DNA of 64,000 nucleotides from Trebouxia sp. TZW2008 (Eukaryota > Chlorophyta > Trebouxiophyceae > Trebouxiales > Trebouxiaceae): positions 92,479-156,478 of the forward strand of contig BDIU01000138.1 of assembly GCA_002118135.1 (NCBI GenBank), written 5' to 3'. The position numbers were made by a program, and so were the translations under genes. The notes beneath the pieces were generated by a model. The model worked only from the letters and a program-made list of their open reading frames with translations. It ran no database searches and had not been told where the DNA came from. This document shows positions 13,445 to 60,150 of this stretch, piece by piece (positions within the stretch are counted from its first letter, which is position 1; each line of letters starts with the position of its first letter).

Positions 13445-16400
13445 GACTACCTCAGAAGCGCTCTTGGCAGAATTGCTGCAGCTCCTGCGTTAGCCAGACG
13501 TCTAGGCCTTGCGTCAGCTGATGTGCAGCATGCCATCAATGCTACTTTCGACGAGCTCTGCGCTGCTGACTCCCAAAACGGATCAGGCTCTCAGCTAAAA
13601 CTTGTCTTCCGACATGACTGCCAGTGAGTATGCTTGGCACATCCATTCCGTTCACCTTAGCCTGAGCGCACTACGAACGCTGTGGCGTGCTCACAGCCTG
13701 TAATTGCTGAGTGCAGGAACCTGACTTGCCTGAATCCCCGCTGCGTGCTATGTTGTCAGAATCCTAACAAGCGCTGTCCAGACTCCGTCAACTTTGCTGC
13801 AAAGTACCTTGAGAGGAACCCTCTGAAATCCAAGTGTGGGGCCAGTATCAGAATAGAAGTTGTGAATGCTGCCACTGGGGAGCTTGCAAATCCTCAGCTA
13901 CTGCAGGATGTGCAACTTGAGGTCAGTTGACATTACAGTCCTCTGCAGTTATCCTATGCAGCATGTATCCCTCCAACCACAATTTTCAGTACAGCACACA
14001 AGCCCAAGCCCATAATGCAAGCTGAGTTTGTTGTTTCACACTTGCACTGTGTACAAGCATGCAAAGGTGAACGCCGGTTGCAAGCCTTGATGGCCAACTT
14101 GGCAAGATATAGCATGCATGACAACATGCTGATGCCTTTCTGTCTGTGCAGCTGTCCATGCTGGATGGCAAGAAATATGCTGCCATGCATGAGACTGGCG
14201 AAGATGTTGCCTCTTGCGAGCTTTTTCTGACACCCAAGGTGAGTCATCTCCGCTCACAGCATTCTGGAATCACTTCTAGCATGGCTTGCAACTGTGACGG
14301 AAGTATGCATTCTTGTCTGCGCAAGGATTTGATGCATGGCAATTGCCTCAATGGTTCAGCGTCAGTAGATCACAGTCAGCAGCACGCTAATGCTGCTTTC
14401 ACATGCAAAAACAGGCAGCAAAGCTTCAGGGGGAGCGTATCAGGATCTACAGAGTTGTACATGCTGTTGCATGGCAAGAGTGTGTGTCAAACAGCTGTTG
14501 TGCTCAAAGAATCACAAACAGCACAAGTAGCCAGCAGCACCAGCGTCTGGAAACACTCTGTGCTCACTTGCACAGCTCAACATGAGATGTCCAAGTCATC
14601 ACGCAGCCCAAGTGCAATGTATGCCACTTGCATCCTGCACATGTACAACCAACACTTGCAGTGGAACTGCTTAGCCATGGTGTCAAAAACGCTGCCGGCT
14701 GTTTTCACAAGATGTTCATGCCACTTGCATCCTGCATTTATTGGGCACAAAAGTGCAATGAAAACGCTCACTTGTGATGTCAAAAATCGTAAACTAGCTT
14801 ACCTGAGACTTCAGCCATTGCCTGCGTGTTTAGGGCAAGGAGCTGTTGAACCCTGGAAGACTTGGTACGCATACACATCAGTACAGAGTGAGAGTGCCCC
14901 TCACGCCTCGCGGTCAGGCTGTGTTGAGCACTGATCTCAATGTCCAAGGTAATTTGGTCAGGTGTCTGTCCATAAAAGCTGGAAGGCCTTCATGTTACGC
15001 TTGTGCAGCATTGAGTTTGTCTGGGTTGTCATGTTCACCTGCAAAATGCTAGTGCCTGTTCATGGCAACAACAGTCTTGCAGCAGCAGCATCACGCAAGC
15101 TACATACAGCAAGCACCAATGCGCATGTTGGCCCATACAATTCACTTGCATTCAGAAAGTGTGGCCAACCTGTGTTGAGCACTGCATTCAATGTCCAAGG
15201 TGACTTCGTGAGCAGCAGCAGCATTGCACAATGTATACAGCAAGCATGAGGAGTCCAGCTGTATTGAGCACTGATCTTACATGTTGCCCTGGGGGGTCTC
15301 TTGTGGCATTGTCAGATTGTCAAAACCTGTATTGGCCATATGTGGCTGGCAGATATGAAATCACAAGGCAGATGTTCGTGACGCCCTGTCAAGGAAAAGC
15401 CTGTTTCTACATGGTGCATGTTGCCTGGTATTGCTGCCTGCTAGTCTTGCCTGCAGTCAGCTTTGAGGCCAGGCTGACATCCTCGTTGTTGTCAAATGGT
15501 GCATGTCATGTAGATGGTGCACGACAGTGAAGTAGATTGTAAATTTTTCCCCGCAGTCAGCTCTGAGGCCATGTGGGGTGGGCAAAACTCATCAAATGGT
15601 GCATGTTGTTGTTCATAATAGTTCATAACAGTATAGTCAAACATGCAATTTTCTCTGCAGTCAGCTCTGAAGCCATGTTGGGTGGGCAGAAGTCACCATA
15701 CAAGCTGCTGGTGCGGGCTGTCAGCCAACACACAGGACAGGAGGTGCCTTACATCACCTTTGTAGCATCTGAAGACTTCGTGGTGAGTAATACACAAATG
15801 ACACAAGCTCTGCACTTTAAGCATCTACACATTGTTGCTAATCAGTGTTCACCACCCCTGCGATCAACCAGCTCACGGGACAGGAGGTGTCTTATATCAC
15901 CTTTGTAGCATTTGAAGACTTTGTGGTAAATGCCACATGCAAGTTCTGACACAAGCTCTGCACTCAAGCAGCATCACGGGATTTTATGGTGACTGACACA
16001 AGCTGCGACACTAGCTTTGCACTCAACGCTTCATGTAGCTTTTCTACGATGAGACACTGTTATGATTGTCTCCAAATGCTTGTTGTATTTGCATGATTGT
16101 CATTGAGTCACCCAGCATTTTGTTGGAGTCACAGATTTCAACACTTTGCATGGCTGAGGCAACTGATTATAGCACAAATGAACTTTCTTGTCTGTTGGTC
16201 TCACATCAGGCTTAGGATCCAAGACCAGTGATCGGTGTCATGCAAAGACACAGGTAGCAATGCCGCGCTTGGCTAGGCAGACGTTCCATGTGGGCATGAC
16301 CCTATCAGCTAATTTGTCATGGCACCTTTACCTCTACATCTGTTGATTTCCACCTGGGCATGCTGATGTTCCAACAGGTGGTGACATCCCAAGTGAACAT

Positions 16401-19400
16401 GGCAGTGGTCACAGTAGTGACATGTGTGCATCTTTTCCAATCAATACTCAAGTGTGTGGGTGTGCTAACAGGTGGCAACGCCTCGTGTGGCTATGACCCT
16501 GTCAGCAAGCTTGAGGACAGCACTTCCAGGGCTGTTGATCAGCACCCAAGCGTTTTGGTGTTGTGACAGTACTCTGTTGTTCCTGTAGGTGGCAACGCCT
16601 CGTGTCGCTAAGGCAGTCAAGGCAGAGATTCCCTGTGTGGACGACCCTGTCAGCAAGCTTGAGGACATTGGGGAGAAGACTCAGAAGAAGCTGGCTGACA
16701 TTCAGGCGGCCGCAGAAACGTGTGGGGTACATGATCTCGTCTTCCCTGAAAGAAGTGTCACCACAGGTTAGTGTTCTGATCATACGTGACAGACAGGTGA
16801 CACTGGAACTAGACAGATACTGAACTAGAGACTCTGGTCACTTTTCATGGCTTTGCCAGTGGCTATGTACTCTAGCCATCGACTTTGCAATGTTGGTTCG
16901 CTAGTCAGGTACAAAAGCTGTGGCAGAAAAGTTTGGGGTGCATGACCTTGTTTTCCCCTGAAAGAAGCGCCTTCACAGGTCAGTTTCAAGGGGAAAAGGG
17001 AACAGTCTGTGCCGTTTGGCGCTGTAATGGGAGCTTTAGGAGCTCGAGAGTCAGGCTTATGTCAGGGCATTGCTCCTGCAAGCGCTCACGTCCTGTGGCT
17101 GTCAAGTTCTTTACAGTTGTTTACCAATTTGTCATGAAAGCTGAGCTGGATTTCACTGTCACTGGAGCTGCAACAACGCATAGGGTGTGTGTTCTGACTT
17201 CCCCAAAGAGCGACATCACAGGTCAATCATAAAGCTTGCATCCTCAAGCCAATCAGCTGGGGCAAACACAAATTGACCTGTCCTGCTTCCAGCTTTGTAC
17301 AGGGTCAGTCCCAATTGGTACCCTTACCAAAGATCTTGATCTGCTTGTAAGTTTCAGTTGGCAAGGTGCCCCCAACAAGGCCCCTCTTCCATCTGAAGTG
17401 GATTTGTGTCTCCGCTGTCAAGATATGTCCTGCTGCAGTGGGTCAGTTTTGGCAGCTAGTGGAGTTGGCTAACAGCGACCCTCGCTTCAATGAGAAGCTG
17501 AAGCAGTTCCTCATTTCCAACAAGGCTCAAGAGCACAGGGCCATAGCAGTGATCAGCTGCTGTTGATGTTCAGTCAAAGATTCACAGCCCTTCAAAGCTC
17601 ATTTTACCCATTGCCTGTTCAGTTGGTCAATTCCGGCAACTTGTGGAGTTGTCCAACAGTGACCCCCGATTCAATGAGAAGCTGAAGCAGTTCCTGATCC
17701 CCAACAAGGCTCGAGAGCATGTGGCCATGGCAGTGGAGAATGACAAGCGGTTGCGCATGTGGTACCCGGAGCCTAACAACATTGAGGGAGGATTACTGTA
17801 CCGCAGTGTCAGAGCCAGAGTTGATCTGGATCATCCTGATGGTAAGCTTTCTCTGAGAATTTCTGTACTGCTGACTTGCTATTTAGGCATGACTGAGCCC
17901 AGCACATGCTAACTTGAGCCCTATAACAATGGGGGGAGGAGGGGGAGGGGGGGGATGCTGTGTGTTGCTGTGTGTTGCAGTTCTGGTGCAGCACAACGTA
18001 TTACCAGAGGGGCATTACTCAGCACAGCCCAACCTGGACCCCTGCTCTCAGGCCCAAGGGGAAAGAAAGAGGCAGTCGAGTGCTTGACAGCCACAGGCGA
18101 CTTCAAGTCATGTACTATCAGCAGCTGACGTTCTTCTGCTGTGTTGTGCAGTTCTGGTCCAGCACAAGGTATTGCCAGAGGGGGGTTACTCAGCACAGCC
18201 CGACCTTACCCCCTGCTCTCAGGCTCAAGGGGAAAAGAAAGAGGTAGTCAAACGGCTGACAGCCAAAGCAAAAGAAGACTGGAAGGCTGCAGATCACCCC
18301 AACTGGAGCATCAGGGATATGGACAGTGCTGATTTTCTGGACCACGTGCAGCTAGGGCAGGTCAGCACCCTGTTCTTCAGCCATTGTTTGCTGCATTTCT
18401 CATTTGTTTTGCGCATATTTCATCATTATGTGTTTTGCATCTGCCAAGGCTAAGCAGGAATTGGATGGCTACAGAGTACCGAAATTGCAGCATCGGGGAC
18501 ATGGACAGTGCTGACTTCCAGAATCAGGTGCGGCCAGGGAAGCTCAGCTTCTCTGAAAAGAGCTTTCTCTTTCTGTACAATCCATGCCAGTGCAGGTGTT
18601 GTCTGTTGCCACATCTGTCTGCTGCTCAACTTCAGAGAGGGCTATCTCTGCACTCCAACTGTCTTTGGGTGAGAGCTTCCAACATTGGCACTGACACCAG
18701 TGACCAAAGGCTGGTGGTACATATTCATGATACGAAACCTTGTGTCATATGTTGCACAAGACTGTTGCAGAGCTGCTGCATACTTATGCAAGCATGTGCT
18801 GAAGAACTCTGCGGCGTGGTTGCAGAATGGCATTGAATATGTGCTTCAACTCCAGAGTGCAAGCATTTGGAACAGAAATCTGTGAGCTGCAACTGCGGCT
18901 CAGATGGTTTGGGTTACCATCACATACATTTAGTATGTGAATGCTTGTAATGTTCACAAGCATCTATTGACAAGTGCCTATGTTGTGGATGCAGAATGGC
19001 ATTGGGTACGCTTCAATTCCAGAGAGCAGGCATTTGGAGCACACCTTGGGTCGCAACAGCGGCTCAGGCAGTTTTGGTCAACATCTCCAGGGCTCAGGGC
19101 ATTTGGGGCAGGGCTCAGGGCATTTGCCCCTGCAGCATAGCCCACACGGCTCAGGACACTTTGGTCTGGGCCTGAGTCAGTCAGGGCAGTTGGGGCAGGG
19201 TTCAGGGCAGTTGCCCTTGCAGCACAGCGCACATGGCTCAGGGCAGTTTGGCATCAGTCCCAGTCAGTCAGGGCAGTTGGGATTGAGCCCCCGCCCCAGT
19301 GGTCAGGGCTCAGGGCAGTTGGGGCTCAGCCCCAGTCAGGGATCAGGTCAGTTGCTTGAGCAGCTGCTGGGTGCAAGGAGGTCAAGCTCCTTGACGGGAA

Positions 19401-22400
19401 GTGGCAACTGGCAAAGGGGCTCAGGGCAGTTGGGAGGGCAGTTTGCAGGCAGCCCTCACCTGACGGCAGGGCAAAACCGCTCAGACAGCCCTTTCATGCT
19501 GGGATCTAGTCAAGCTTTTCAACCAAATGGTGGTGCGTGAAACCATACGATGACGCCATTGTGACACACACAGAGTTTTACTTGCTTGAAACACTATTTT
19601 GCTAAAAGCAATCAGTAAATGTGTCTCTGTGTTGTGACACATGCATCAAAGTATGAGTTTGCTGATTATGATGACCGTACTGCATCAGTCTGCAATGGCT
19701 GCCTGCAATTGCAATCTGTGGCTCAAGTTGTTCATGCCACCCTGTGGCGGGGCACTTTGGTTCCGGCCTTCAACAGCCCTCCAACACTTTTGCTGGCTTT
19801 CCGCCATCTTCTGGAAGTTCACCGTTCCTCGACTTCACTGCTCAGCTGCTCATTTGTATGCGACCCTGCAGGGGCAGGGCACTTTGGTGCTGGCCTTCAA
19901 CAACCCTCCAATGGCTTTGCTGGCTTCCCGCCATCTTCCGGAAGCTCACCGTTCCTCGACTTCACTGCTCAACAGCCATCCATGGCGGACATATTTCCTG
20001 GGCAAGCTTCTGCACAGCAACCTGCAACTTCCCAGGCAACTTCTTCCAGCTTGGGCCATTGGTCATCAGCTTCTGGTCAACATCAATTTCCTGACCATGG
20101 CAGGTCGTTGCAGGTAAGCTCTAGATGGACAAAAAAAACAACAGAGAGGAAAGCAATTTCAGCAAGAGACACAACAAAAGTCTACGCCATTAGGCAACAT
20201 GACAGGAGCCCCCGATGTCACAAGCAGCTGTCACCTTGTTCAAAAAAGAATGCATCATTGGGCTTCAGCCCTTTGAGCTGCCTTTCATTGATACAAGTCT
20301 AGGCCATGTTGCCAGGTGAAGCTGTCAGGCAGCATCATCATCGTATGGCAGTTCAAGCTCACTTACTACCACAGCTGCTAGACTGTCGCAACATCAGACC
20401 ACTGTTCATGTTCTGATCCTTGTCCACTCTCAAATCTGCTTCTGTGAATGGCTACAGGACATGCAGAACAGTCTGAGCAGCCAAGATTCTCCAAGCATTG
20501 GCAACGGGCCCTTTGGCAGTCACCTGCCCTCCACCTCAGGGGCTGCCGAGCACAGCCCTGCCCTCAGCCAGGCCCCCAACCCCCCCAGCGCCCCCACCAC
20601 CCAGTCCTTCTACCCCACCTTGGGGTCTGGCAGCCTGGCTGACCAGCTGGCAAGACCAACTGGATTGGACAGAATCAGCTCTGGCTATGCTGAACCTGGT
20701 GGGCTTGTTTTCCTTGCTTGTGCCTCACTTTTCCTGATGCAATCCTGATCTGTATAGTTTGGCTGATTAATTGGCCAGACTGACTGGGTTAGACAGAATC
20801 AGCTCTGGCTACGCTGAGGCTGGTGAGCCGGTTTTCCTTGCTTTTGCCTCACTTCTCCTGATGCAAACCTACTTTGTGCAGTTTGGCTAATTGTTTGGCC
20901 TGATAAACTGCCTTAGACAGGATCAGCTCTGGCTATGCTGAAGCTGGTGGGCATGCTCGTCTTGCTTGCATGTATGTTTGCCTCATGCTAGCTCGACCTA
21001 GCGCTATGTTGCCTCGTTTTGGCATCAGTTGATTCGTATCTACCTTACACCTTAGATGCGGCTGTGCCTTCCCTGCTGTGAGGTTCTAATGCTGCTTGGG
21101 CTACAATTGAGGGCGGAGCATGAGCGTTGGCTGCTTTGCACCAAATGTGCTTGAGTCTGAATCAGCCAAATAACTGCAGGGGCAAAACGCATGCGGCCTC
21201 CAACACCCCCCCAGCCTGATGGCGGGGCGCCCTACCAGCACCCCTCTTCAGAGATTGCCCTGCAGCAGCAGCTGCTCAAGCAGCGGCACAACAGCGGCAA
21301 CACCTCTGGCTTTGTACCACCGTCCCCATTTGATGGCCTAGATCAGCAAGGTGCCAACTCAAATCAAGCTGGCCCTAGCACATCAGGTAATGCCATACTC
21401 TAATCCACCACAACTGCCATGCCCCTCTCCAGACCCTCCCCCCGACCACCTCCCCAGTCCTGCATGTGTGTACTGTGCACCATTCCAGGGGCTTTTTCCT
21501 GCTGATCAGCTGAGACTTGATGCACAAACTTGCTGAGATTGAGAGCCGCGGTTCAGTGCTGGGTGCGTCAACATGCTGAGATTGAGTGCCTGACTGTTGA
21601 GACTGTCTGCATTGCAGCAACCTTAGGCCACACATCAAAATCTTTCCTGTCTGTTTATACTATGCAAGGCCTGACCGTCCAGGTCGGCCTGGGAAGATCT
21701 AGAATGACATCTTTTTGTCTGACTTTCAAAAGTTGAATATCAGACATCCTTACAAAGACGCTCAGAACAGGCCTGCCTGGCGAGACAGGACTTGGGCCAC
21801 AAACACCTAGCACATGTGCTGGAATGTGTGTCTGTTGGAACACAGCTTATCACCTCTCCCTCAACTGTTGCAGGAGCTCAAGATGGCCAGCCACAGCAGC
21901 CGCAGCATCAACAACCAAAAGCACTGGAAGCTACCAAGCAGCAGCAGCAGCAGGCTATCCGGCAGCACCAGCAGGAGCATGCGCAAGCAGCACAGCAGAA
22001 TCTGGGTGATCCCAACTTGCAGAAGAACATTTTAGAGCAGCTGCATGGTAGCTTCCAGTGCTTTTGGTGCTTGTGTTGCATGGTTGGCATGCTCTGTACA
22101 TGTCAGGGTTGCAAATGATCAGTAACACAGTACGGCAGCTGCAGTGTAAGACGCTTTTGCGGCCTGCACTTGTGCTGTCGTCTGCATGCTCTGCTGATTG
22201 TCAGGTCAAAATCTTATCTGTACTATTTTCTGCAACAGATGGCAGCATTGACAATGGTGCATGTGACACTGCAATGCATCACAACAGCAGCTGAAAGACA
22301 TGTAAGGGCATACAGTTTGCACATATTTGCATGCCAAGCATTGTGTTTGACAATGTTTTGCTGGACTGTCTTGCTGTCGTGCTGTGCTCCAGGCACGTAC

Positions 22401-22743: not shown

Positions 22744-22798
<55 letters not shown>

Positions 22799-27147: not shown

Positions 27148-30100
27148 ATGGCGGAAGGGCTCCCGAGCGTACCGCGCGAACTCGAGGGCGTGCCTCCGGA
27201 TGTTCTGCAGGTGACACAGGGCCCCAATAACACTCGCTCTTCGGCGAGGCCACGCTCGCTCGAACGAAAGCTGCTGCTGACCCGACCAGTGTGTTGCGTC
27301 GCAGCGTCACGTGTCAGAGTGTGTCCGCTATGCACTGGACCTGTTGCGCAATGACGTTGCCATACCTGAGCAAGCGGTATCCCGCGTCTTGGACCAGATG
27401 TCCGCATCCGGACTGCAAGGAGGTCGGGTGAGGCCACCCGATAAACCGGTTCAACAGAGCGAGACCGGCTTGGAGCTCGTCTTTGGACATCAATGCCTGT
27501 AGGTCACACAACCTTCGTTCAACGCAGTCTGTTGCAAGTCGCTGCTGTACTTTGTAGCACCACCTAGGCTTGCCGAGTGCTGATCACTGATTCGACTATG
27601 CTGACACCGTCCTGTACGCATGGGGCCAGGAACAAGACATGCCTGTCTGGCAACACAAAGTGCGATCTTTGCGAGCGCAACCCCAACAAGCGGTGCGAGC
27701 TGAGCCGAAACTTTGCCATCAAGCACCAGGAGGGTAAACAGCTGCTAGCAGCTTGCAATGCCCCGGTCAAGCTTTTTGTGCGTGGGCTAAAGACCCCTCA
27801 GGAGCAAGCAGACCCAAATGCACCCAGCACATCAAGCAATCAGCCTGCTGTGCATCCATCTGATATCATCATCGAGGTGAATTTTACTGCATGGACTTTC
27901 AATGTTCACCAAGCTCGGACATCTTTGAGCCAGCAGGTATGTGCTGTGCTGTAGAGTGCTGGGTAGATTTTGCTCCCTGTCAGTCTGCCTCAAGCACAAG
28001 CCGACCCGCTGCAGCTAAGCGACGCAACCCTGTACTGCTTCCAAGCTCAATGCAATCCGACATGTCATGACATGTCAGACCTGTTCCTGCACTGACTCTG
28101 CTCAACAGCGCCAAGGATGCAAGCAAGCGTCAGCTAGTGACACGACAGAATTCTGGCTGTGGTTTTTCACTTTTTGAAAGCACCAAGCATGCAAGCAAGA
28201 AGTGTGTGCTGTTGACAGGCCAGACCTCTGCTTGCAATTCTCGTTGCTCAAGAGTGCAAAGCACACAAGCAAGATTCAAGCTAAGACATGCCAGAATGCT
28301 GCGTGCAGTTTTCCTTGCTTGAAAGCCCCAAGCATGCAAGCAGCCATCAACTTGTGACATGTCCAAGGTTTCCGCAAAGCATGCAAGTAACTCTTATTTG
28401 TGAAATGCCACAACTCTGCCTGCAGTGCTTGTTGTTTTTGCAGCATCAAGCATGCGAGCAATCGTCAAGCTTTAAACATCATGTGACATCATTTGACATC
28501 GTCTAACATGAAGTGACATGCTAGAACTGTGCCTGCAGCTCTCCTTGCTTGACAGCGCCAAGCATACGAGCAAGTGTCAAGCTGTGCACATTATGTGACA
28601 TCATTTGATATCGTCTAACATGATGTGACATGCTAGAACGGTACCTGCAGTTCTCCTTGCTTGACAGCGCCAAGCATGCAAGCAAGTGTCAAGCTGTGCA
28701 CATTATGTGACATCATTTAATATCGTCTTACATGATGTGACATGCTAGAACTGTGCCTGCAGTTCTCCTTGCTTGACAGCGCCAAGCATGCGAGCAAGTG
28801 TCAAGGGCTGCATGATGATGCCTCCCTGACTGAAGAGCAGCTGAAGTCGTGTGAAGTGCTGGACTGCACCAGTGACAGGGAGAAGAAGAAGGACCCCTCT
28901 GCAAGCAAGGTATTGATGCTGCCCTCTTCCAATCAATCACATTCTCATGGCTGTCATGGCAAGTTCTCACATGTCATGTCCTGGACTGCACTAGTAACAG
29001 AGAGAGGAAGGAAGACCCTGCTGCAAGCAAGGTATTGCTGCTCCCCTCTTCCAGTCAACCACATCCTCAAGGCAGTCATGGCAAATCTCAACATGTCATG
29101 TGCTGGACTGCACTATGGTGACTAGCTAGTGACAGAGACAGCAAGGAAGGCCCTGCTGCAATCAAGGTCAATGCTGCCTGTAACATGGCAACATTGAGTT
29201 TGATGGCAGTCAAGCAAACCTCAATGTGCAGCAAAATCAGATTACATGTCAGCTGGTGCAGTGTTCCAGAAGTGTTCCTCACGTACACATGTATGCCAAG
29301 GGTTTGAAATTGCCATAGCTGCTAGGTGTATGTGATACGGAATGCAGACACATGGTGCTGAAACAAGCCAGATCAAACAAGACAGTCTCTTCTCACACTT
29401 TCCTGGACAAATCGCCACATCTTGAACCTTTCAGCTGACCAGGCATCTCAATTTGCACAATGCATTGTTGCTTGATGTCGGGAGCAAGGGATGTCACCAC
29501 ACGTACACACACACACATAGAAGACTTACTCGAAAAACACTTTAGAAAGAATATGGCTCCACTGATCAATTTCTGCTGGAAGAACTTTGATACAAAACAA
29601 ATTTCTGTCTCTGACAATTCCAAAGTTTGTCAATGTCCAGATTATTGTTACCAGAGACAGTTGCTTGTAGGTAAAGGAGCAATTGCTGAGAGGGGTGACC
29701 AGCGAGGCAGAGACTACAGCAGCACTCAGGGTCAGGAAACGCTTGAGCATCCAAATGGACACCGTTGTGGATGTGCAGGCCATGAGTGAGTGCCTCATTT
29801 ACCGCCGTTCATAACTGTGCTGTCATCTGCAGTCATGCTCGTGTAGCTGTAGGAGCACCAGTCAGAATCACATATGGGATCATCACTACATCTACATCTA
29901 AGATGTCCAAACACATAGGAGTCAGATCAAGCTCAAACTGTTTCATTGACCAGAATCATATCGTTGGGCAATATCTGAACGCTACATTTGCAGCTCATGC
30001 TGTCCTGCATCTGCATGTTTCACTTCAAGCAAAAGCCTTGCGGCAGAGCTGCATGGACTCAAGACGGCATGCTAGATGGCTTACTCAAGCGTGTGTGCCT

Positions 30101-44900: not shown

Positions 44901-47584
44901 CCCAGGGTCAGTGGAATCTCAGGTGGGGCAGGTTCCAGCAGGCCCTGCTTTAGGGCAGATCCAGGGAGCGGCCCTGAGGCCTCAGGGTTCAGCAGGGTCT
45001 CAGCAGGGGCAGTTCCCAGCAGGCCTTGCCATGGGACAGAGCCTGGGAACAGCCCTAAGGTCACAGGGGTCAGCAGGGTCTCAGCACTTCCCAGCAGCCT
45101 TTGAACCAGGGCAGCAGGCACTGCGGATGCCCTTCAAGGCCCGGCCATCCCCAGAAGTGACACAATCCCCAAGAGTCCCAATGTGGCCAATGGACTCAAG
45201 AAATTTGTCAGTACTCAACTCTGTAGTCATCGAAGAAGAGGACAGCACAGTAGAAAATGCACACTCTGCTGCTGTGGACAACTCAATGCCTCAGTCAATG
45301 CATCAGCTGAGGTCACATGAGTCACCCAACACACATCCTAACAGTCACAAGCTGGCACCATATGCTCAACCCATTCCAAGCTCAGCAATCACAGACCGTA
45401 ATGACAATTCTGACACTACCGGAGGCTTCTTGCTTGACAATGACAGCATGCATGCCTTGCTCTGGCTTCAAGGAGACCAACAGACAGCACAGCCACGACC
45501 CGACACCAATCATAGCAGCACTTTTTCAAGGGACATCAGTACCAGCAACTCTCACATGCCACATGGCAGTCTGCAGCTGAGTCAGCCTCAGATGACTCAC
45601 GATCGCCAAATGCTGAGTCAGGGCAGTGGGATGCTGTCTGAGGGCTTTCAATACATGCCTTCAGAAAGGACTAGTCAGTCTGGCAGGGACAACAATGCAG
45701 GCAGTGAGTTTCTGCTTCAGAGCTTCCAATCTGCGCCTTTAGAGAGAAACAGCCAGTCTGGAAGGGACAAAAACGCAGGCAGAGCTTTGCAAGGGCACAG
45801 CCAAAGCTGTTCCAGAATCCCTTCAAGGCGACTAGACAGAGGTCCCAGCTTCAGCGACCAGCGAGGTGTGACAGTCAAACGCACATGCACGACTGATATT
45901 CAGACATTGTACAGGCGTATGTGCACATATGGCCGTAACAGCAGATCTCGTTTGATGACAGGTTCGCGTGGCACACAGCATGATGGGGCCCAAGTCTTGC
46001 TTCACATTGTGAAGATATTGAATTGCATGCCAAAGTCTGCTTACATGTTGCTACCTTTTTATTAGCCTGTATGCAATTGCCTGCCAAGACATATGAGGCT
46101 GTCATAGCATTGTCACATTTGGGCGCCATGGCATTTCTGTCATGCTCCTTTTCAGTCAATATCAACATTTGTGCGAGCCACACTCAGCAGGTTGTAGTTT
46201 CTGTGGGATGCTCCAAGCTTCAACCTGCACATGCAGGAGCCAAAAGACGCAACACTGCACCAGAGCTGGAAAGTATAGTCCAAGCCTTCTTTAGCAATGA
46301 AGCACACCCCCATTCTAGCTTGACACAACAGCCAGATCAACCGCTGACAGTAGTGGTTCAGCCGCCCCCTCAACACGTTCAGCGCGTGATCTTTTCTTTC
46401 CTTGCAAAGATGCGCGCATTGGCGGCAAGAAGGCGGCAGATGCAGTTTGGAGGCCTGGCAGTGTTTGACACTCGCTTGGAGCAGCGTTTCAGGCTGAGAG
46501 CGTGCCTTGCAATGTGGTCTAGATGTAAGTCTTGTCGCCTTGTCTGATGCACTACAGTTGACACGCATGCAAAGAAAACACATAGCAGGCGTTGACACTC
46601 GCTTGGAGCAGCGTTTCAGGCTGAGAGCATGCCTTGCAATGTGGTCTAGATGTAAGTCTTGTCGCCTTGTCTGATGCATTACAGTTGACACGCATGCAAA
46701 GAAAACACATAGCAGGCGTTGACACTCGCTTGGAGCAGCGTTTCAGGCTGAGAGCGTGCCTTGCAATGTGGTCTAGATGTAAGTCTTGTTGCCTTGTCTG
46801 ATGCATTGCAGTTGACATGCATGCAAGGAAAACACATAGCTGGCGTTGACATGCGATCGGAGCAGAAAGTCAGGCTGAGCCCTTGCTTTGCAATGTGCTC
46901 CAGCTATAAGCCTTGATACCTTTCCTCAAGCAATAGTTTAGTAGTAGTTGTCACAGGAAGGAGCAGTACTATCACTGTTCATAGTAGGAGCAACAGCAGT
47001 AGTAAGCAGTAAAAGCTGACGTGCATGCGGCAAGGCTCAATGAATGGCACTCAGTAAGATGCATATGTGTTGTAGCTGGGGCTTGAGCGCGGACTGACAT
47101 CGTGGAATGGACTGCCAAAAAATGATCATGTATATATGCCATAGCACCTACAAACCAGCATGCGCTGCCTGTTACTTGTCACTCAACAATCTCTGCCTTC
47201 CTAGAACGGTGAGCAGCCGCCACATAATCCGCTCAGTGCACTCAAGCAGGGGCGCCATGGTTCATCCAACGCCGCACAAACATGCCTAAAAGTGTAGAGA
47301 TTTGCTGTTTTCTGTTTTCAGTGCAGTGACTGTGTCAGGAGGACATACACAGCTGTATCCATGTGATGAAGCTTGATAGTCATACCTTGCTGACTAGTGT
47401 CTCTTGCCCTGCAGCTGCTGCCGCAAATCAAGGGGCCTTGACATGGAGGGATGCAAGCATGCCCACAGGCAATGCTGACACTTTGAGCCTGTGGGAGTTT
47501 GACACAAACAGCCTAGAAGATTGTGGCCTTTCAAGAATGGATGTTGATGCTCTACTTCAAGACTTGATGCAGCCAGTGACATGA
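39000..47584 (+). CDS. CBP60-like putative transcription regulator, paralogue C
   Basis: Start chosen at 39000 (MSAPPVPVELREAPPQALQ) because it matches the first exons of B and D; an in-frame ATG lies at 38973. Exons: 39000-39056, 39165-39346, 39471-39711, 40152-40265, 40530-40644, 41263-41371, 41882-42090, 43777-43995, 44495-45865, 46237-46524, 47415-47584. Total 1024 residues, in frame only if exon 7 starts at the upstream AG (41882) rather than the homologous site at 41916. The exon holding AVRDLDKTASAAWHQQQHPGWS is fused to the disordered exon; the intron present in A, B and D is absent. C-terminal KR exon GAKRRNTAPELE, basic helix VIFSFLAKMRALAARRRQ, then RFRLRACLAMWSR and an acidic tail LEDCGLSRMDVDALLQDLM that looks like an activation segment. 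Role inferred, as for A. Confidence 0.7.
39920..40070 (+). repeat. Partial copies of gene C exon 40152-40265
   Basis: TTACTCCTGAATGGTGCCTCACATGACAG-like and ACCCTGAACGGCGCCCTACATGACAG-like strings upstream match the start of the intact exon. Confidence 0.8.
40645..40785 (+). repeat. (GTGA)n microsatellite growing from a splice donor
   Basis: The donor of gene C exon 40530-40644 (GAAG, then GTGAGT) runs directly into about 30 copies of GTGA/GTGG. Almost every unit is itself a perfect GTGAGT donor string. Confidence 0.9.
42845..42985 (-). mobile_element. SINE-like dispersed repeat R1, copy 2
   Basis: Same core as 11294-11445, including the GGACATGAAGGGCGGAGAGGTCC end. Intron of gene C. Confidence 0.55.
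44300..44440 (-). mobile_element. 5'-truncated LINE 3' end, copy 2
   Basis: Reverse-complement match to the LINE ends at 21660, 53165 and 60740 (GCCTGGCGAGACATGAG block). An ATT-rich string at 44300-44325 lies on the side expected for its tail. Intron of gene C. Confidence 0.55.
46590..46910 (+). repeat. Three donor-side copies of gene C exon 46237-46524
   Basis: Units of about 127 bp carry the exon 3' half (GACACTCGCTTGGAGCAGCG to GTGGTCTAGAT) plus donor GTAAGT and intron. They start near 46594, 46721 and 46847. The first two are almost identical to the real exon and keep the donor; the third is decayed. Confidence 0.95.
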
Positions 47585-48126: not shown

Positions 48127-50010
48127 ATGGTGTCCAGCAACAAGTCGTGGAGTTCAGTCAAAGTCAAAAGTGTTCTTGCAATCCTTATTGTCCTTGGCTT
48201 GGCAAGCTGCTGCCAATGCACAGAGGAAGCAAACGCGCGGTTGCAACTACGCATCGAAAGGCGAGCACGTGCAAAAGCTCGCAGGCCAGCGCTGAGGTTG
48301 GACTCTCCTTCTGAAACCACAGTCAAAGCGTCCCCCACCACCTCTGACAACTTCTCTCCTGCAGACTGGGCACCGTTTGTGATCAACAGCACCTGCTCTG
48401 CCGGCATGTCGACCTCCTGGGCTGCCTGCATCAAAGACACAGTAAACAGAGCAGCGCAAGAAAATGCAAAGCCAGCACGCATCACCTATGCAGAAGAGCT
48501 AATCTTCCCTGATTTCCAACTTCGCATTCCATTGTTTGCCAAGGACGCAGACAAAGCATACTGGCTGCAGAAGGTTTCTGCAGAAGTTGGCAGGGCCTCT
48601 CTTTCTGGAGACCTCCTGTCATACAAGGTGACACAGTGAGGAAGCTCCCCTTGCCTTCGCGCATGTAACGCATGTTGAGCAATGTCATGCAGACTCTCCA
48701 GTGTGATGTGCTGGGCGAGCTATCAGCATGACCTTGATGTGCAGCTTTGTGAACACGGCGCATTTGCTCCACAACCTGGCTGCTTGCATGGAAAGTGCTG
48801 GGACAGGCTGAGTCAATTTAGTTGGCAACACATTGCTCTATGAAGTTTCTCAATTAGTTGGCTCTGACAACATTGATTCTCCAGAACCATTTCAGTAATG
48901 CACAGCTATCTTTCCTAGATGTGTGAATCATCCGCTGACTGCACTGCTTGTCTTCAAGCCATGGCTGTTAACATGCAGGGGCAACATGGTCAGAACCTGG
49001 TTTTCAGTAATGCAGCTTACAATGGCCTGCCAGCCAGTGACGCATGGATGGCCAACTCTTGCCTGAACCCTGAGGTTTCACACAGGTCTTTTGGAACAGA
49101 AGTTGCAAGAGAGCCTGACCCTGCAGCTGCCACAGCAGCTGTTGACTCAGCCTCAGACGGCATGGAGCTTCCGTCCATTTCCATTGCAGCTTCCCCTGAC
49201 AGCTGGAGCTTCCAGCACTTTCATGACAGGGTGACTCATATCATCTTGCAAGGGCAACATCTCACACACAAAGACACAACTTATGTCACTGGACGTGAAC
49301 CAGATAGTCCCTTTGTGAAAGCGCTGTGGAATAAGCTAGTCCCCAAAGCTAAGCAGCACGTACTGCATACACGTGAACAGCATTGGCCAATTCGTGCTAA
49401 GGAGCTAATTTTCAGCTGCCGAGCACCGCTCGTACACCCATGGTTCACTCAGCGCTTAGCAGAGGAAGCAGGGGTTATGGGTGCGCAGAAACCCTGGGCT
49501 GACCGCAAGGTTATTTTGTACTGCTCAAGATCAAGGGGCATAGGAGGTGTCATGCACAACGGGGGTCGCAGTGTGAATAATGAGCCTGCTGTGATCAATG
49601 CACTTGAGACATTGTTGACTGTCAGAGCTGACGGCGAAAGGCTTGAGGTATTTGACCTGAGTAAGTGGGAGAGTGACTTTGATGGCATGGTTGATTACTT
49701 TGCAAGCCAAGTCAGGGCTGTAATAGGACCACATGGAGGGGCATTAGTCAATGTCAACTGGGCTTCAAGAGCTACGGGTGTTGTTGAAATCATGCCTAGC
49801 AATCTGTTCTCTGTCGCTATTTATGAGCTAGCTGGCACCCTAGGACACCGTTATGGTTTCATGCAATCACCTTCTGTGAATGACCAGAATGACATGACAA
49901 TTGACATACCAGAATTGATGGGCATTGTGAGTGCTGTGTTGAATAATGAGGCGGGCAGTGAGGTTTTGCAGTCTGCATACATGTGGAATACCAATGCGCA
50001 CAAGCTGTAG
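48127..50010 (+). CDS. Family 61 glycosyltransferase (DUF563/EOGT-like)
   Basis: Transfers a sugar, probably onto a glycan or protein in the secretory pathway; donor and acceptor cannot be told from sequence. Two exons, 48127-48627 and 48979-50010, join in phase to 510 residues. The N terminus has a hydrophobic segment (SVLAILIVLGLASCC, about residues 15-29) fitting a signal anchor of a Golgi or ER type II protein. The C-terminal half has GT61 landmarks: KVILYCSRSRG, NEPAVINALETLL, then AVIGPHGGALVNVNWA and VVEIMPSNLF. It sits between paralogues C and D but is unrelated to them, and shows no exon-edge repeats. Confidence 0.85.
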
Positions 50011-54000: not shown

Positions 54001-57000
54001 ATTGAAATGCAGCGGGTGACCATAATGTGGTCTAAGGACAGCTTGAAGCCAGTCATATCCTGCCTAGACCCAGTCAATAAGCTGGAAGGCTTGGCAGAGA
54101 ACACCAAGCAGACTCTGAATGGTGTTGGTAACGCTGCAGGTGACAATCATGCCATCTGAGGGCAGCCTGAAGCCAGTCATCCTTGCCTGAATGACTCTGT
54201 CACCAAGCTGAAACGCCCTGCCGCAGCTACTGCTGCGAACACAAAGCAATGAACACTCACTGACCCAAATGCCAGTGTAGCATCAAGGTTTGAAACAGTT
54301 TATGTTGTGACAGGTGACCACAATGCGGTCCAAGGGCAGCTTGAAGCCAGTCATCCCTTGCCTAGATGATCCAGTCAACAAGCTGGAAGGCCTGGGAGAG
54401 AAGACAAGACGCAACCTGCTAGAAGTGCGGGCCTGCGCTGCAAGCCTGGACTTAGGCAGCTATGTGCCTCAGGAGTGCCCTGACCGTGTCACCACAGGTC
54501 TGCTTTTTGCCTTTTACTCACAACTCTGGTTAAGGGTTTTTGGGGTATTTGAGCTCGTTTGTGTTTGTCCGTGCTACTAGCTTGGACTTAGGCAGCTATG
54601 TGCCCCAAGAATGCCCTGGCCGTGTCACCACAGGTCGTTGTGTTGCCCAAAGCACAGCTTGCTCAGCGTCTTGTGGTCTTTGTCGCCTTCTGTAGTGCCT
54701 GTTGAAGTGCTTCTTGTCAAATTTGACAAAGTTCTGGGCAGCTATGTGCCTCAGGGGTGCTCAGACTGTGTCATTACAGGTATGTATTGCATGGCATGTT
54801 TGTCATTGGCTAGCTTTACATCTAGATGTCTGACATCTTTGTGTCTCTCTGGCTGCCTGGGTTAGCATGCTAGACAAGTATGGGCAAGTATGCGCCTGAG
54901 AAATGTGCAGACCGTGTCACTACAGGTTTGTCATTTGCCCACAAACCAATACTCAAATTGTGATTGGTTCATGAGTGTCAGCATTGACAATACTATGATC
55001 TGTTTAGCGTTGCTGCTTCCAAAGCAACACTCCCGGCTGCCTCTTTAGACAGAGGCTCCCGTTATGACGCCTAACGGCGCAGACTTTTCTTTTTTTTCCT
55101 TTTCTTCTCTATGATCTCGGTGCCTGAACCTGGCCAGCTGCATGTCGCAGGAGTGCTGAGACTGCTCCACACCCTCATCATATCTGTTGATCATTCAGTA
55201 GTATCTTGCTCAAGCGAAGCATTGCTGTGTTTCAGTGAGGTGATTTCAGGAGCTGATGGACAGCCTAGTGGTGAAGAGCCATTGCTTCAAGCTGTGCACC
55301 AGAGATTTTAACTGCTGAGTTGAGTCCTGCTCCACAATCTTGTGGACTGTTGCATGAGACAATCACATGTTACACATTATACACTCTATGTGAATTTGTT
55401 CAGCTGGTCAAACGGTTGATGGTCTGATGCAGTGAGGCAGTTTCAGGAGCTGATTGATTGCCTAGTGGTGCATAACCACTGTCCTAAGCTGCTGACTAGG
55501 GCACTTGTGCCTGATGCTGCCCTAGAGCATGCACACAGAGCCGTACGGACAGACAACAGGGTACGGCGCTGGAAGCTGCCTGGAAGCTGTGAGTATGAGC
55601 TGCTGTACAAGTGCTTCAGGGGGCAGGTGGAGTGGGGCAGTCCTGATGGTCAGTAACTGCCCTCAGCAACTGCCCTCAGCAACTGCCCTCAGCAAATGCC
55701 CTCAGCGCTTTGTGATGATGACGACATTATCTTGCAGTTCTTTTGTCATGCCAGCAGTGCATTGACTACAGCTTTGTCAACTTGCACCCAAGCATCGGTT
55801 TACCTGATAACTTGACGTGACACAGCTTGTCGCAAACACTGCAAATGCTCCAGGACAAAACAGCAAGTGCATGAATTTTTTGATCTGAAACAGCAAGATT
55901 TGCTGCAGTGCTGGTGACATATGAGAGTGGACTCAAACCCTATGAGCTGACCCTAGCAGGACGAGGCACCAGCGAGCAGGCAGCCAAGATGGCAGAACTG
56001 GCAGAAGATGCTTTTAGGGCTTGGAAGACGAAGGGACACCCTGGGTGGTCTGTTGACAGCATGGACAGTCACCAGATGCAGCAGCTGGATCAGCATTTGG
56101 ATCAGCAACTGGATCAGCGCCTGGATCAGCAGCAGGTAGAGCCTTGAGCCAGATTCCCCTCTCTCATGTGCCAACAGCCTGTCCTGCCAAAGGTGTTTGC
56201 CTCCTCTTTTTGATTTCGTTTTTCGAAAGTTTAAGAGCTTGTTCCTCCTTTCGTCCTTAACCTCTGCTTGGTAGGAATTTGTGAGCCTGCGCAGTCTAGG
56301 AATCTGCTCATGCTTGGAGCTACCCCGCTCTATGTCTTTGATCCTTGATCCCAGGCTGCTTCTAAAGACAGAGGCTCCCTTTGTGATGCCTGATGGCGTA
56401 GACTTTCCTCTTGCGTTTCTTTTCTGGATCCTGGTCCCAATCATGACCAATCTTAATGCTTTTTCTGAGCTACACTGCCTTGGCCTGAGTTGCCCTGACC
56501 ATTTTGTTGCTTGATTAACACCTCTTGGTTGCCCTTGCAGTCTATTTTTTAGCCCAGCTGATGGGTTGCACTGAGGAAAGCATCATTTTGATGCTCTTGT
56601 AGACGGTATAGAACCTATCATTTGTACAGGAGTCTGCTACAGTGCGGTTGTCAGTTGCAAAAAGATGGCCTGCAACACAAATGTCACATTGAATGCACTC
56701 CCCTTCCTTGTCTGCCCTTCCCTACCCAGACCCCTGTGGAACCCTAATTTCATCACCTTAGTACATGTGCGGCGCATGGTTTAGGGCACTACCAATGTAG
56801 CGTATGTAGCAAGCATAATCACTGGGTCGAGTTATCTGGTTGGGATGCAAACATTGTTGGCTAGATTTGGCCAGGGCCTGCAAGCCATTACCTCAATAAC
56901 AATGGGAATGCCAGGCGGCTTCTACTCACAGAGATGCCTTTTATGTTGCCTCATGTTACAGAGACTGTGGACTGTGTACTGTTTTATGTTGTCGTCTGAT

Positions 57001-60000
57001 ACTGATGGGCATAATTGCAGGACGTGCTGCAGCCAGGAGCATCTGGACAGGACCAACCCCATGCTTCTGGTCACAAGGAGGCACTCCCTCTTTCACTAGG
57101 CATAAGAGCTCTGTCCGACAGCAGCTTCATCCCAGCTGCAGGTCATCAGCGCTCAGCAGCTTCTTGGGAAGCTGACAGGGCAGGGCTGCATGACGCAGCC
57201 CTGGCGCCTAGCCCTGCCCTGGCCCATAGCCTCATGAATTCTGCAGCTGCCAGCTTGCAGCAGCCGCTGCCAAACCCTGCAGACATCCTGGCAACCCTAC
57301 CTGGCTGGACAGGTGGCAGCGAGGGCGGCTTAGCACAGCCCCTGTCAAGAGCCCTGGCTGGTTCTGCCCTTCAGTCAATGCTGCTAGCCACACCTGCTGA
57401 CACGCATGATGGATTGAGCAGTTCAGGATCGTTCAAGAGTCTGCAAAACGCACAAGGCCCAGCACAGACAGATGCTGCTGCAACTGCTATTGCTCAACTA
57501 CCAGCGCATAGCAGCAGCGGCATGCAGACCAGGCAGCGTGCAAAGCGTCAGGCGTCAAAGCATGCACAGCGTGATTCCCCTGCTGAATCTGATTTGGCTC
57601 AGTCAGTGGATGAGTTAGCTCAGCAGCATCCAGAGGCTGATCACAAGTTTGAGCAGATTCTGCTTCAGACTTCCTCAGGGCAGTTGGCAATAGCCTTGAG
57701 GCAGGAAGCAGCAGCCCTAAAGCAGAAGCCCCTAGGGCAGTTTGCAACAGCCCTGAGGCAGGATGCAGCAACCCTAAAGCAGGAGCCCTCCACCCATAAC
57801 CCAGAAATGCGACATGACATCAGGCAGCTGCAAAAGGAGCTGTCTTTGAAGCATGACTTACTCATCACCAAGCACAGCAGTAGCAGAGACTCGCCAGCAG
57901 CAGTCCCCCACTCAACTGCTGCCACTCTAACCCTAGATGAGGCGCTGGAATCCATTAATCCCAGTCATGGCTTCTCTTGGGGGTTTCCAAACCCTTTTGC
58001 TGGGGCAGCAGAGCAGGGCACGTGGCAGCTGCCCACTAGGGCTGAGGGCACAAGCAGCCAGCAGCCAGGCCCAAACGCCAACAGCAGTGATGTCAGCGCT
58101 TCTTGCCATCAGGTGTGTGGCCGTCTATTCATTCATTTTCATTCATTCATTCTAAACGTGGGCTAGGCAGCAGCAGGCCCAACTAGGTACGTACAGAGGC
58201 AGTCAACTGTCTCCAGCCGGTTCGATCATGTGCTAACCTAAACCAAGTATCTGGCCATCTATGCTGCATGCAAAGCATTGCGCCTGCGTGCACCCAGCAG
58301 TGTCACAGCAGGTCACTGGCAAGCATGCAAACGGTGCTGGCGATGATGATCCACCAATTTAAACTTTTGTGGAATTCTTTTTGGGATTCTTTTCTTTTCA
58401 CCAGTCTTTATTTTCTTGCAATCTGTGGCCATCTTGATCCTATTCAACTTCACAGGTCACATACGCAAACAAAATGCCTATGCCGCAAGGGGTCTTGTGG
58501 GGACTTCAGATAGACTTCAGCGTCCTGACGCTGCTCTGAAAGAGCAGGAAGCCTCTAAGAGACCCTAGGGACAATTGAGCTGGGAACCTGAGGCACTGCT
58601 ACTCATGCCTTGTTCCCCTTTCCCTTTTTCTGTACCGTCACATAGTGTACACATACTTACAGCACTGCATTGAGTTGAAGGCTTGCATGTGTCGCATTCC
58701 TGCTGCATGATTCAACTGTAACATTCGCTATTTGCTCAACACTTGTAATGTGCAGACAGCACAGTAACTGCACCCTATGTTTTGATGCAGGACTTGCCCA
58801 CCAGTGGCTTTGATCAACTACCTGTTCTGGGTGCTCTGCCACTTTCAGCTGATGCAGGGTTTGGCCTAGCTTCTCCACATCAGAACAAGCATGACAGCAT
58901 ATGTGTGGGAGTTGCGCAGTGATTGCAATCTTTGATGCAATGCAGGATGTGCCAAGCAGTGGCTTTGCCTCCCTGCCTGTTCTCGCTGCTCTGCCATCTG
59001 CAGCTGATGCAGGATTTGGCCTGGATCTTCCACATCAGAACAAGCGTGACAGCATGTGTGTGGGAGTTGTACATTGATTGCAACCTGCGATGTGATGCAG
59101 GATGTGCCCACCAGCGGCTTTGGTCAACTACCTGTTCTTGGTGGGGGGGGCAAGTGCATTTGATCCAGGGTGTGGCCTTGATCTTCACATCAGAACAAGC
59201 CTGATAGCATGTGTGTGGGAGCAGTGCAGTGATTGCAATGTGATGCGATGCAGAATGTGCCACCAGTGGCTTTGGTTCATAACCTGTTCTTGGTGAGGCG
59301 GCAAGTGCAGTCAACCCATCATCTGCAATCTGTGCAGTGACCACAACCTTCGATTTGATGCAGGATTTGCCAACCAGTGGCTTCGGCTCCCTGCCTGTTA
59401 TGGGTGCTTTGCCACGCGCAGCTGATCCAGGGTTTGGTCTTGATGTGGGCATGAGACCAAGCCTGAGCCTTGAGCCAGGTATGCGTCACATCATGAAATC
59501 GTGTGCATTGCTATGACATGCATGTTGTCAATGTAGATGCCGCATCATGCTTTGCATCCAAGCTTGATTCATATTGGCAAGGACTCGACATGCTGTTGTA
59601 TGTTTTGGGTCAGGGTCTGCATACATGGCCCTCCACTTGCTGAGCTGTTTCAAATGCCGCAGTGAGGAAGCGGACAAAATGGTCAGATTCCGGAGAAGCT
59701 CCGAGCAGGTCACCTTCCCCAGCCTCAGTTGAGTTCTGCTCAGATGCTGCACCAGGGCAGGGCGCTTTGCAGCAGCCCTTCAGCAAGAGCTGCTGGCGTT
59801 TACCTTCTGCTGAGCACATTGGCAAATCTGAAGCTGAAAGCCTGTTCCCATGGCCTCACGGCAAATCGTTGCAGTCCCAGGGCATTTTGCCACAGCCCCA
59901 GGGCGGTTTGCAGCAGCCCCAGGGCATTTTGCCACAGCCCTTGTTGCAGCATAGCGCCATGTCTTTGCCCGCAAGTCCCTTTCTGAAGGCATGCACAAGT

Positions 60001-60150
60001 CCAACATTGCCTCACTGCCAACAGCTTTCCAGTGATATACGCCAAAGTCAAAGTCAAACTCCTCAGTGTGATGACAGCAGTTGCCATCAGACCAGTAAAA
60101 TGTCTGCAGAGGAACGGCAGCAGTCTTTTACAAGCCTGCTGGAGCAGTAG
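51061..60150 (+). CDS. CBP60-like putative transcription regulator, paralogue D
   Basis: Twelve exons in phase, 1045 residues: 51061-51117, 51197-51399, 51574-51796, 52154-52273, 52790-52892, 53680-53789, 54314-54497, 55433-55648, 55909-56135, 57021-58112, 59364-59478, 59663-60150. The first intron has a GC donor (CAG, then GCAAGA). Conserved half: LKLSFQHDC, Cys insertion (TC, CPLC, NPNRRC), ICLEFSLLNG, YKLLVRAL, DPVNKLEGLGEKTRRNLLEV, LLYKCFRGQVEW, LAEDAFRAWKTKGHPGWS, then LDQ repeats. The disordered exon has AIALRQEAAALKQ repeats. The final exon begins with the KR motif (VRKRTKWSDSGEAPS) but goes on as QGILPQP repeats and stops at FTSLLEQ, so D has neither the basic calmodulin-binding-like helix nor the separate acidic exon of B and C. 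Function inferred. Confidence 0.7.
53165..53425 (+). mobile_element. LINE 3' end, copy 3, with ATT-rich tail
   Basis: Two frames together give the LINE C terminus (GRSGMTLF in one, then GAQDKPAWDDRTCATHT and stop), indicating a frameshifted relic. It is followed directly by about 80 bases of TTATTATCA-type simple repeat, as expected for a LINE tail. Intron of gene D. Confidence 0.7.
54000..54935 (+). repeat. Exon-edge arrays around gene D exon 54314-54497
   Basis: Acceptor-side copies begin near 54014 and 54138 (GTGACCATAATGTGG, AGCCAGTCAT). Donor-side copies (GGCAGCTATGTGCCTCAGG, then ACAGGT) end near 54632, 54779 and 54925. Confidence 0.9.
55030..55140 (+). repeat. Dispersed repeat R3, copy 1
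   Basis: AGACAGAGGCTCCC, GATGCCTxAxGGCG and GACTTTxC blocks shared with 56340-56450; both lie in introns of gene D. Type unknown. Confidence 0.55.
55228..55312 (+). repeat. Acceptor-side copy of gene D exon 55433-55648
   Basis: TTTCAGTGAGGTGATTTCAG and GAGCTGATGGACAGCCTAGTGG match the start of the intact exon about 200 bp downstream. Confidence 0.75.
56340..56450 (+). repeat. Dispersed repeat R3, copy 2
   Basis: Matches 55030-55140 in the same orientation. Confidence 0.55.
58133..58255 (-). mobile_element. SINE-like dispersed repeat R1, copy 3
   Basis: (ATTC)n followed by AAACGTGGGCTAGGCAG and the R1 core. Lies in the gene D intron just after exon 57021-58112. Confidence 0.55.
58465..58640 (+). 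repeat. Dispersed repeat R2, copy 2
   Basis: Matches 1925-2100 with scattered substitutions and small indels. Confidence 0.7.
58790..59363 (+). repeat. Four upstream copies of gene D exon 59364-59478
   Basis: Copies starting near 58791, 58947, 59101 and 59251 read GATGCAG, then DLPTSGF/DVPSSGF-type coding, with a period of about 154 bp. The first two keep open frames through the exon core (LPVLGALP, ADAGFGL); the third and fourth are interrupted. Confidence 0.9.

What the first reader, a model, noticed from the sequence alone, without database searches (positions are those of the whole stretch)
13445..60150. Pervasive exon-edge tandem duplication with a strict polarity
Across paralogues A-D I count more than 15 exons with extra partial copies. 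Copies holding acceptor plus exon start always lie upstream of the intact exon. Copies holding exon end plus donor always lie downstream. The same pattern appears in the minus-strand LRR, hypothetical and DDX60-like genes, but not in the nicotinamidase, dehydratase or GT61 exons. This leaves strings of competing splice sites around single exons. Some arrays look recent (unit identity near complete), others decayed, so the process seems continuous. Possible meanings: a replication or repair bias that breaks at exon-intron boundaries, poison or decoy splice sites that tune dosage, or a reservoir for gene conversion. I know of no described system of this kind.
Basis: partly seen in the sequence, partly recalled or inferred. 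Interest (0 to 1): 0.9.

Follow-up and report, generated by a model that had tools for sequence, protein, structure and literature searches.

The report
Pervasive short tandem duplications straddling exons
This probably algal genome is full of short side-by-side duplications of roughly 75-210 letters; many cut across exon edges and leave partial exon copies that seem to do nothing, their one-way layout follows from simple geometry, and whether they favour exon edges beyond chance is only partly settled.

Summary
The partial exon copies are real: 40 of 144 homology-defined exon edges carry one, and 14 of 16 arrays in paralogues A-D (e1-e6) cross an exon edge against 6.3 expected. The polarity held in 50 of 50 pairs but is forced by geometry: a tandem duplication across one splice junction leaves the intact exon at the far end. 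Such duplications are genome-wide: 160 arrays in 309 kb, 15-19% of bases, units mostly 75-211 nt, median 140. They also lie inside introns and, in frame, inside exons. Copies decay without clear selection on coding sequence or splice sites. Is there a preference for exon edges? With gene-finder exons yes: 37 edge/15 noncoding full-length arrays versus 23/26 by shifting, not reproduced by planted random duplications. With homology-only exons it is marginal: 25 versus 17.5, P 0.03. Best reading: a very active, size-limited tandem-duplication process filtered by selection, with an edge excess of about 1.3-1.8-fold that is part detection effect and possibly part real. An earlier test of mine that showed no excess was faulty and is withdrawn.

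The parts
15492..15698 (+). A e3 upstream array, offset 100
15721..15964 (+). A e3 downstream copy, offset 143
16485..16667 (+). A e4 upstream copy, offset 150
16712..16984 (+). A e4 downstream copy, offset 211
17436..17735 (+). A e5 upstream copy, offset 184
17966..18268 (+). A e6 upstream copy, offset 171
18280..18548 (+). A e6 downstream copy, offset 182
18816..19085 (+). Array at the 5' side of predicted exon 18995-19346, offset 169
20636..20968 (+). Array at the 3' edge of predicted exon 20458-20698, offset 124
28060..28805 (+). B e2 upstream array, 5 copies, unit about 112
28850..29177 (+). B e2 downstream array, unit 122
31353..32386 (+). B e5 upstream array, 7 copies, units 130-140
33078..33666 (+). 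B e6 upstream array, 3 copies, unit 161
39912..40193 (+). C e2 upstream copy, offset 231
46465..46922 (+). C late-exon downstream array, unit 127 (shared exon segment at 46353-46523)
54006..54405 (+). D e4 upstream array, 2 copies
54437..54939 (+). D e4 downstream array, 3 copies
55233..55481 (+). D e5 upstream copy, offset 197
19094..19354 (+). In-frame duplication inside a coding stretch, unit 87
35016..35285 (+). In-frame duplication inside a long open frame, unit 66
35424..35575 (+). In-frame duplication inside a predicted exon, unit 45
44900..45103 (+). In-frame duplication inside a predicted exon, unit 81
57677..57788 (+). In-frame duplication inside a predicted exon, unit 57
505..764 (-). 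129-nt (43-codon) duplication in the minus-strand LRR gene, outside the quoted region
14919..15212 (.). Duplication not touching a homology-defined exon, offset 251

Best explanation
The genome has a high rate of short direct tandem duplication with a narrow unit size (mostly 75-210 nt). It hits introns, exon edges and exon interiors. Selection removes most events that alter coding, so inside exons nearly only in-frame ones remain, while events in introns or across one exon edge are tolerated because the intact exon with its splice site is still present. The extra edge copy then decays without clear selection. Tandem geometry alone gives the polarity. The edge excess (about 1.3-1.8-fold) is partly a detection effect, since the copy of a conserved exon stays recognisable longer; a real but modest preference for exon-containing DNA may add to it. 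Shown: genome-wide occurrence, size range, polarity, presence in introns and exons, neutral-looking decoys, edge excess on gene-finder exons. Inferred: the cause of the excess, and the DNA mechanism, most likely fill-in and end joining of breaks with long overhangs or a nucleosome/lagging-strand-length replication intermediate.
For: Density: 43 arrays in the 64 kb window, 25 in a 50 kb block of another contig, 92 around 59 conserved exons. Size: 156 of 160 units within 60-260 nt; no direct pair at offsets 2-8 kb in window or block. Spread: duplication covers 16.5% of predicted exon bases and 15.4% of noncoding bases; intron coverage does not fall with distance from exons. Purging: in homology exons the outer 60 nt are 21.9% covered, the middle 7.8%. 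Frame: 14 of 15 tandem-repeat rows inside predicted exons have periods divisible by 3, against 27 of 78 outside (some rows overlap, and the finder demands an open frame, so partly circular). Decoys. No shared element: 0 of 160 arrays match another. Decayed arrays show a stronger edge excess (65/18 versus 36.2/45.2) than full-length ones (37/15 versus 23.2/26.2), as a detection effect would give.
Against: Full-length arrays are also enriched at gene-finder exon edges (odds ratio 1.9-2.8; two-copy arrays 3.9-5.3). Planted random duplications that went through the same pipeline were called edge in 217 of 605 full-length cases (0.36) and 39 of 169 partial cases (0.23), against 0.75-0.82 and 0.93 observed in the same loci, so random placement plus my detection model does not reproduce the data. 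Simulated detection advantage is only about 1.0-1.3; homology-only data would need about 2. 15 of 40 edge alignments stop within 6 nt of the splice site, versus 18-26% overall and 9-16% where at least 30 nt of intron was copied in simulations without frequent large indels, 34% and 28% with them. Exon-part gaps 0.8% against 1.7-4.4% simulated, third-position share 0.51 against 0.41-0.45, stops 0.0060 per codon against 0.0075-0.0121: all lean towards some constraint on decoys.
Confidence: 0.65

Rival explanations
1. Exon-edge or exon-targeted duplication: exonic DNA (through nucleosome positioning, base composition or transcription) is duplicated more often than intron DNA; selection then removes the interior ones, leaving edge copies.
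For: Edge excess in full-length and recent arrays, not reproduced by planted random events; window A-D 14 of 16 versus 6.3; homology exons 25 versus 17.5, P 0.03. Exons are richer in G+C (0.542 versus 0.482) and noncoding DNA inside duplications is slightly richer (0.503).
Against: Homology-only full-length arrays not significant (12 versus 7.9, 9 versus 7.3, 5 versus 3.4). Overall coverage is about equal in exons and noncoding DNA. Breakpoints are not at a fixed distance from the splice site.
Confidence: 0.27
2. Functional decoys: extra splice sites or partial exons regulate splicing or dosage and are kept by selection.
For: Low exon-part gap rate, few stops and third-position excess relative to simulation.
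Against: Splice dinucleotides kept at near-neutral rates with lower scores; decoy-decoy divergence not lower in exon-derived parts; decoy-decoy third-position share 0.417.
Confidence: 0.05
3. Assembly artefact (false expansion of repeats).
For: None found; raw reads not available.
Against: Copies differ by 8-29% (5-95% range) and in-exon periods respect the reading frame.
Confidence: 0.01
4. Mobile introner-like elements.
For: Splice signals are part of the copies.
Against: No similarity between arrays at different places, 0 of 160.
Confidence: 0.01

Closest known systems
Short tandem duplications formed at DNA breaks (CST/Pol alpha-primase fill-in, PMC8355091, passages read; patch-mediated break repair in rice, Vaughn and Bennetzen 2014, seen only as a reference entry)
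   Same: Direct, adjacent, locus-specific copies.
   Different: PMC8355091 speaks of short (<100 bp) insertions; here units centre on 140 nt and cover 15-19% of sequence. Junction microhomology could not be measured well.
[quoted passage not shown]
   Same: Tandem copy of an intron-exon junction segment beside its parent exon; the same gene also has an 83 bp intronic tandem duplication.
   Different: There the copy is spliced as a new intron and exon; here copies look mostly unused and are many per gene.
Internal gene duplication (Gao and Lynch 2009, seen only as cited in PMC4974935)
   Same: Duplications inside genes.
   Different: Here mostly partial exons; 8 of 147 arrays span a whole predicted exon.
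Introners (PMC9860276, search listing only)
   Same: Spread splice sites through many genes.
   Different: No element shared between loci here.

Membership tests
Short tandem duplications | Direct, adjacent copies (aligned length about equal to offset) | tested here: met
   62 of 147 arrays align over at least 85% of the unit; 354 direct versus 23 inverted pairs
Short tandem duplications | Unit not dispersed elsewhere | tested here: met
   0 of 160 arrays match another array
DNA-break fill-in tandem duplications | Little junction microhomology | tested here: inconclusive
   6 well-preserved two-copy cases: 3 with overhang -2 to +2, 3 without a definable end
DNA-break fill-in tandem duplications | Dependence on Ku, CST, Pol alpha | not testable with these tools
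   needs genetics
Introners | Same element at many loci | tested here: not met
Functional alternative exons | Coding constraint on the copy | tested here: inconclusive
   not seen between decoys; weak signs between decoy and intact exon
Functional alternative exons | Inclusion in mRNA | not testable with these tools
   no RNA data
Exon-edge-specific duplication | Full-length events enriched at exon edges beyond random placement | tested here: inconclusive
   gene-finder exons: yes; homology exons: full-length arrays not significant, all arrays P 0.03
Exon-edge-specific duplication | No events elsewhere | tested here: not met
   33 of 147 arrays touch no predicted exon
Intron gain by tandem duplication | Copy spliced as a new intron | not testable with these tools
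   no RNA data

The most novel reading that the evidence does not exclude
A green-algal lineage carries a hyperactive tandem-duplicator process, capped near the length of one nucleosome or Okazaki fragment, that truly favours exon-edge DNA, so that about a quarter of exon edges carry competing splice-site copies and introns are continually built from exon-edge duplicates.
Probability: 0.27. Interest if true: 0.78.

Novelty: new variant of a known kind. Interest (0 to 1): 0.5.

Why it matters
If the density and the size cap hold genome-wide, this organism would be a natural system for studying how short tandem duplications arise and how genes tolerate them: each exon edge with copies is a dated, replicated experiment on splice-site competition and intron growth. 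It would also warn gene annotators, because partial exon copies look like coding exons. A confirmed edge preference would point to a link between chromatin or transcription at exons and duplication, which could be tested directly.

Tried and rejected
No edge preference in full-length arrays: my first version of this test (full-length rows) cut multi-copy arrays to their first two copies and so miscalled arrays whose exon lies at the other end. My notebook repeats that faulty result and a miscount of 18 of 40 truncated alignments; the count is 15 of 40. The odds for edge targeting were raised accordingly. Gene-finder circularity and simple detection bias as the whole cause: tested by planting duplications and by detection simulations; too small. 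Large indels as the cause of truncated alignments: partly. Introners: rejected. CBP60 membership of A-D: a resemblance recalled from memory; Pfam gave no supporting hit for B and D, the only two of four submitted, so not claimed. A pairwise display was uninformative in 7 of 8 cases because overlapping sequence was matched to itself. Literature: nine searches listed no report of this pattern in a green alga; most subscription papers are not held. Three papers were opened (PMC8355091, PMC6652019, PMC4974935), passages only.

Full report
Setting. The window is bases 92479-156478 of contig C134 in an unnamed 68.5 Mb, 527-contig eukaryotic assembly. A GT61 open frame at 48919-50010 has one 97% and five near-full-length 64-67% relatives without names; named relatives are fungi and Phytophthora at 32-40% identity. 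That the organism is a lichen-type green alga is my inference. Paralogues A-D share exons e1-e6, set by translated comparison within the window and by splice-site scores learned from conserved kinase and helicase exons of the same genome; A e2 was not found.

Observation. Self-comparison finds direct repeats at offsets of about 60-260 nt across the window, also outside the quoted region. With a fixed search space, and after dropping microsatellite-like arrays, 160 arrays lie in 309 kb: 43 in the window, 25 in a 50 kb block of contig C13, 92 around 59 conserved exons, covering 19, 15 and 15% of bases; Markov surrogates give no pair, 50 kb of E. coli gives none, and inverted pairs number 23 against 354 direct. 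Units have a 5-95% range of 75-211 and a median of 140; 156 of 160 lie in 60-260. In window and block no direct pair lies at offsets of 2-8 kb, although longer repeats would be easier to detect. Very short, decayed units would be missed.

Polarity. This is forced: duplicating a segment that spans an acceptor gives L-U-U-R in which only the second U continues into the exon; the mirror holds at a donor.

Edge excess. I trained a small gene finder (right frame beat wrong frame in all held-out exons; 50 of 51 anchors overlapped, 45 acceptors and 37 donors exact). Against random shifts, 102 of 147 arrays touch an edge versus 59.4 expected and 33 touch no exon versus 71.1; arrays of at least 85% identity 32 of 43 versus 16.0; recent, near-complete arrays 9 of 14 versus 4.1. 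Decayed arrays: edge 65, noncoding 18, versus 36.2 and 45.2. Full-length arrays, correctly tested: 37 and 15 versus 23.2 and 26.2; tiled 37 and 18 versus 28.2 and 30.2; two-copy arrays 17 and 4 versus 10.4 and 13.0; with stringent exons odds ratios of 1.9-3.9. On exons defined by homology alone: full-length 12 of 35 versus 7.9 (P 0.09), tiled 9 versus 7.3 (P 0.29), two-copy 5 of 19 versus 3.4 (P 0.25), decayed 13 of 44 versus 7.3 (P 0.03); all 25 of 79 versus 14.9 (P 0.004), or versus 17.5 (P 0.03) once purging and a 1.17-fold detection advantage are allowed, and as expected (25.3) if the advantage were 2. In A-D e1-e6, 14 of 16 versus 6.3 (five of the 16 arrays are full-length, all five at edges; the A e6 downstream array at 18280-18548 fell outside the counted range).

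How much is detection? 1100 random duplications planted in anchor loci, aged and passed through the same pipeline were called edge in 0.36 of full-length and 0.23 of partial cases that were called edge or noncoding; the fraction truly at edges rose from 0.36 planted to 0.42 among those detected. Observed fractions in the same loci are 0.75-0.82 and 0.93. So either the neutral model is too kind to introns, or the gene finder places exons in arrays more than the planting shows, or exon-edge DNA is truly duplicated or kept more often. Expressed as a ratio of observed to shifted fractions, both exon sets give about 1.2-1.5 for full-length arrays other than two-copy gene-finder ones (1.6-1.8) and about 1.7-1.8 for decayed arrays in anchor loci. 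I call the excess real in the data and its cause unsettled.

Not exclusive. Intron coverage by duplications is 0.13-0.21 within 400 nt of the nearest exon and 0.23-0.29 beyond (long arrays that start at an edge contribute). Coverage is 16.5% of predicted exon and 15.4% of noncoding bases; within homology exons it is 21.9% in the outer 60 nt and 7.8% in the middle, as purging of interior events would give. In 38 full-length edge cases the exon part is 0.11-0.87 of the unit, so breakpoints are not tied to the splice site. 14 of 15 tandem-repeat rows inside predicted exons have periods divisible by three, against 27 of 78 outside (rows overlap in part, and the finder requires an open frame).

Fate of copies. 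40 of 144 homology-defined edges carry a copy (24 acceptor, 16 donor side); exon-derived divergence 0.163 with 0.8% gaps, intron-derived 0.171 with 6.2% gaps in aligned columns. In 78 decoy copies (counted with overlaps) there are 12 stops in 2010 codons, 10 copies with a stop and 25 with gaps. Third-position share is 0.51 for decoy-intact and 0.417 for decoy-decoy mismatches; neutral simulation of decoy-intact gives 0.41-0.45. Decoy-decoy divergence is 0.173 in exon-derived and 0.135 in intron-derived parts, gaps 3.6 and 6.7% (pairs with fewer than 25 columns in either class were dropped). Splice dinucleotides are kept in 17/19 and 12/14 decoys (homology exons), 51/61 and 30/43 (gene finder). 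Decoys therefore look mostly neutral. Against this, 15 of 40 edge alignments stop within 6 nt of the splice site, more than simulations without frequent large indels predict, and exon-part gaps and stops are rarer than simulated.

Mechanism and kind. Short tandem duplications are known products of break repair; [quoted passage not shown] PMC4974935 (passages read) describes a duplicated intron-exon segment that became a new intron in potato, beside an intronic 83 bp tandem duplication. What is unusual here is the density, the unit cap near 200 nt and the spread over the genome sampled. The match to nucleosome or Okazaki length is a lead from general knowledge, not a result. Nine literature searches listed no report of this pattern. 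The Asterochloris glomerata genome paper (PMC6652019, one passage read) gives about 9 introns per gene and about 5% repetitive DNA, and the term 'tandem' was not found in its text.

Limits. Exons rest on homology for 72 exons and otherwise on a home-made finder trained on few genes. Only about 0.45% of the genome was read, two thirds of it chosen around conserved exons. No RNA, raw reads, strain or relative DNA was available.

Noticed in passing
window 48919-50010: GT61-type glycosyltransferase in one long open frame; its named relatives are fungi and Phytophthora (32-40% identity), closer ones (64-67%, one 97%) carry no name; possible gene transfer.
   Followed up: partly
window 13717-60150: Four tandem paralogues A-D with a Cys-rich first exon; the two of four submitted to Pfam (B, D) have no match above cut-off, and D finds only two unlabelled homologues covering 17-32% of it.
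   Followed up: partly
window 9602-9670 and 40645-40779: (GTGA)n microsatellites.
   Followed up: no
window 21733-21807, 44349-44420 (-), 53221-53295, 60780-60809: Dispersed repeat encoding a shared peptide stretch, perhaps a mobile-element remnant.
   Followed up: no
window 11324-11398, 42866-42940, 58167-58249: A second short shared open segment at three places.
   Followed up: no
L014: A second, partial kinase match next to the main one (profile positions 118-168 beside 118-204) lies on the copy side of the exon, so partial copies also inflate profile searches.
   Followed up: partly
homology exon edges in window and L002-L061: 15 of 40 edge alignments stop within 6 nt of the splice site, more than most neutral simulations predict.
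   Followed up: partly
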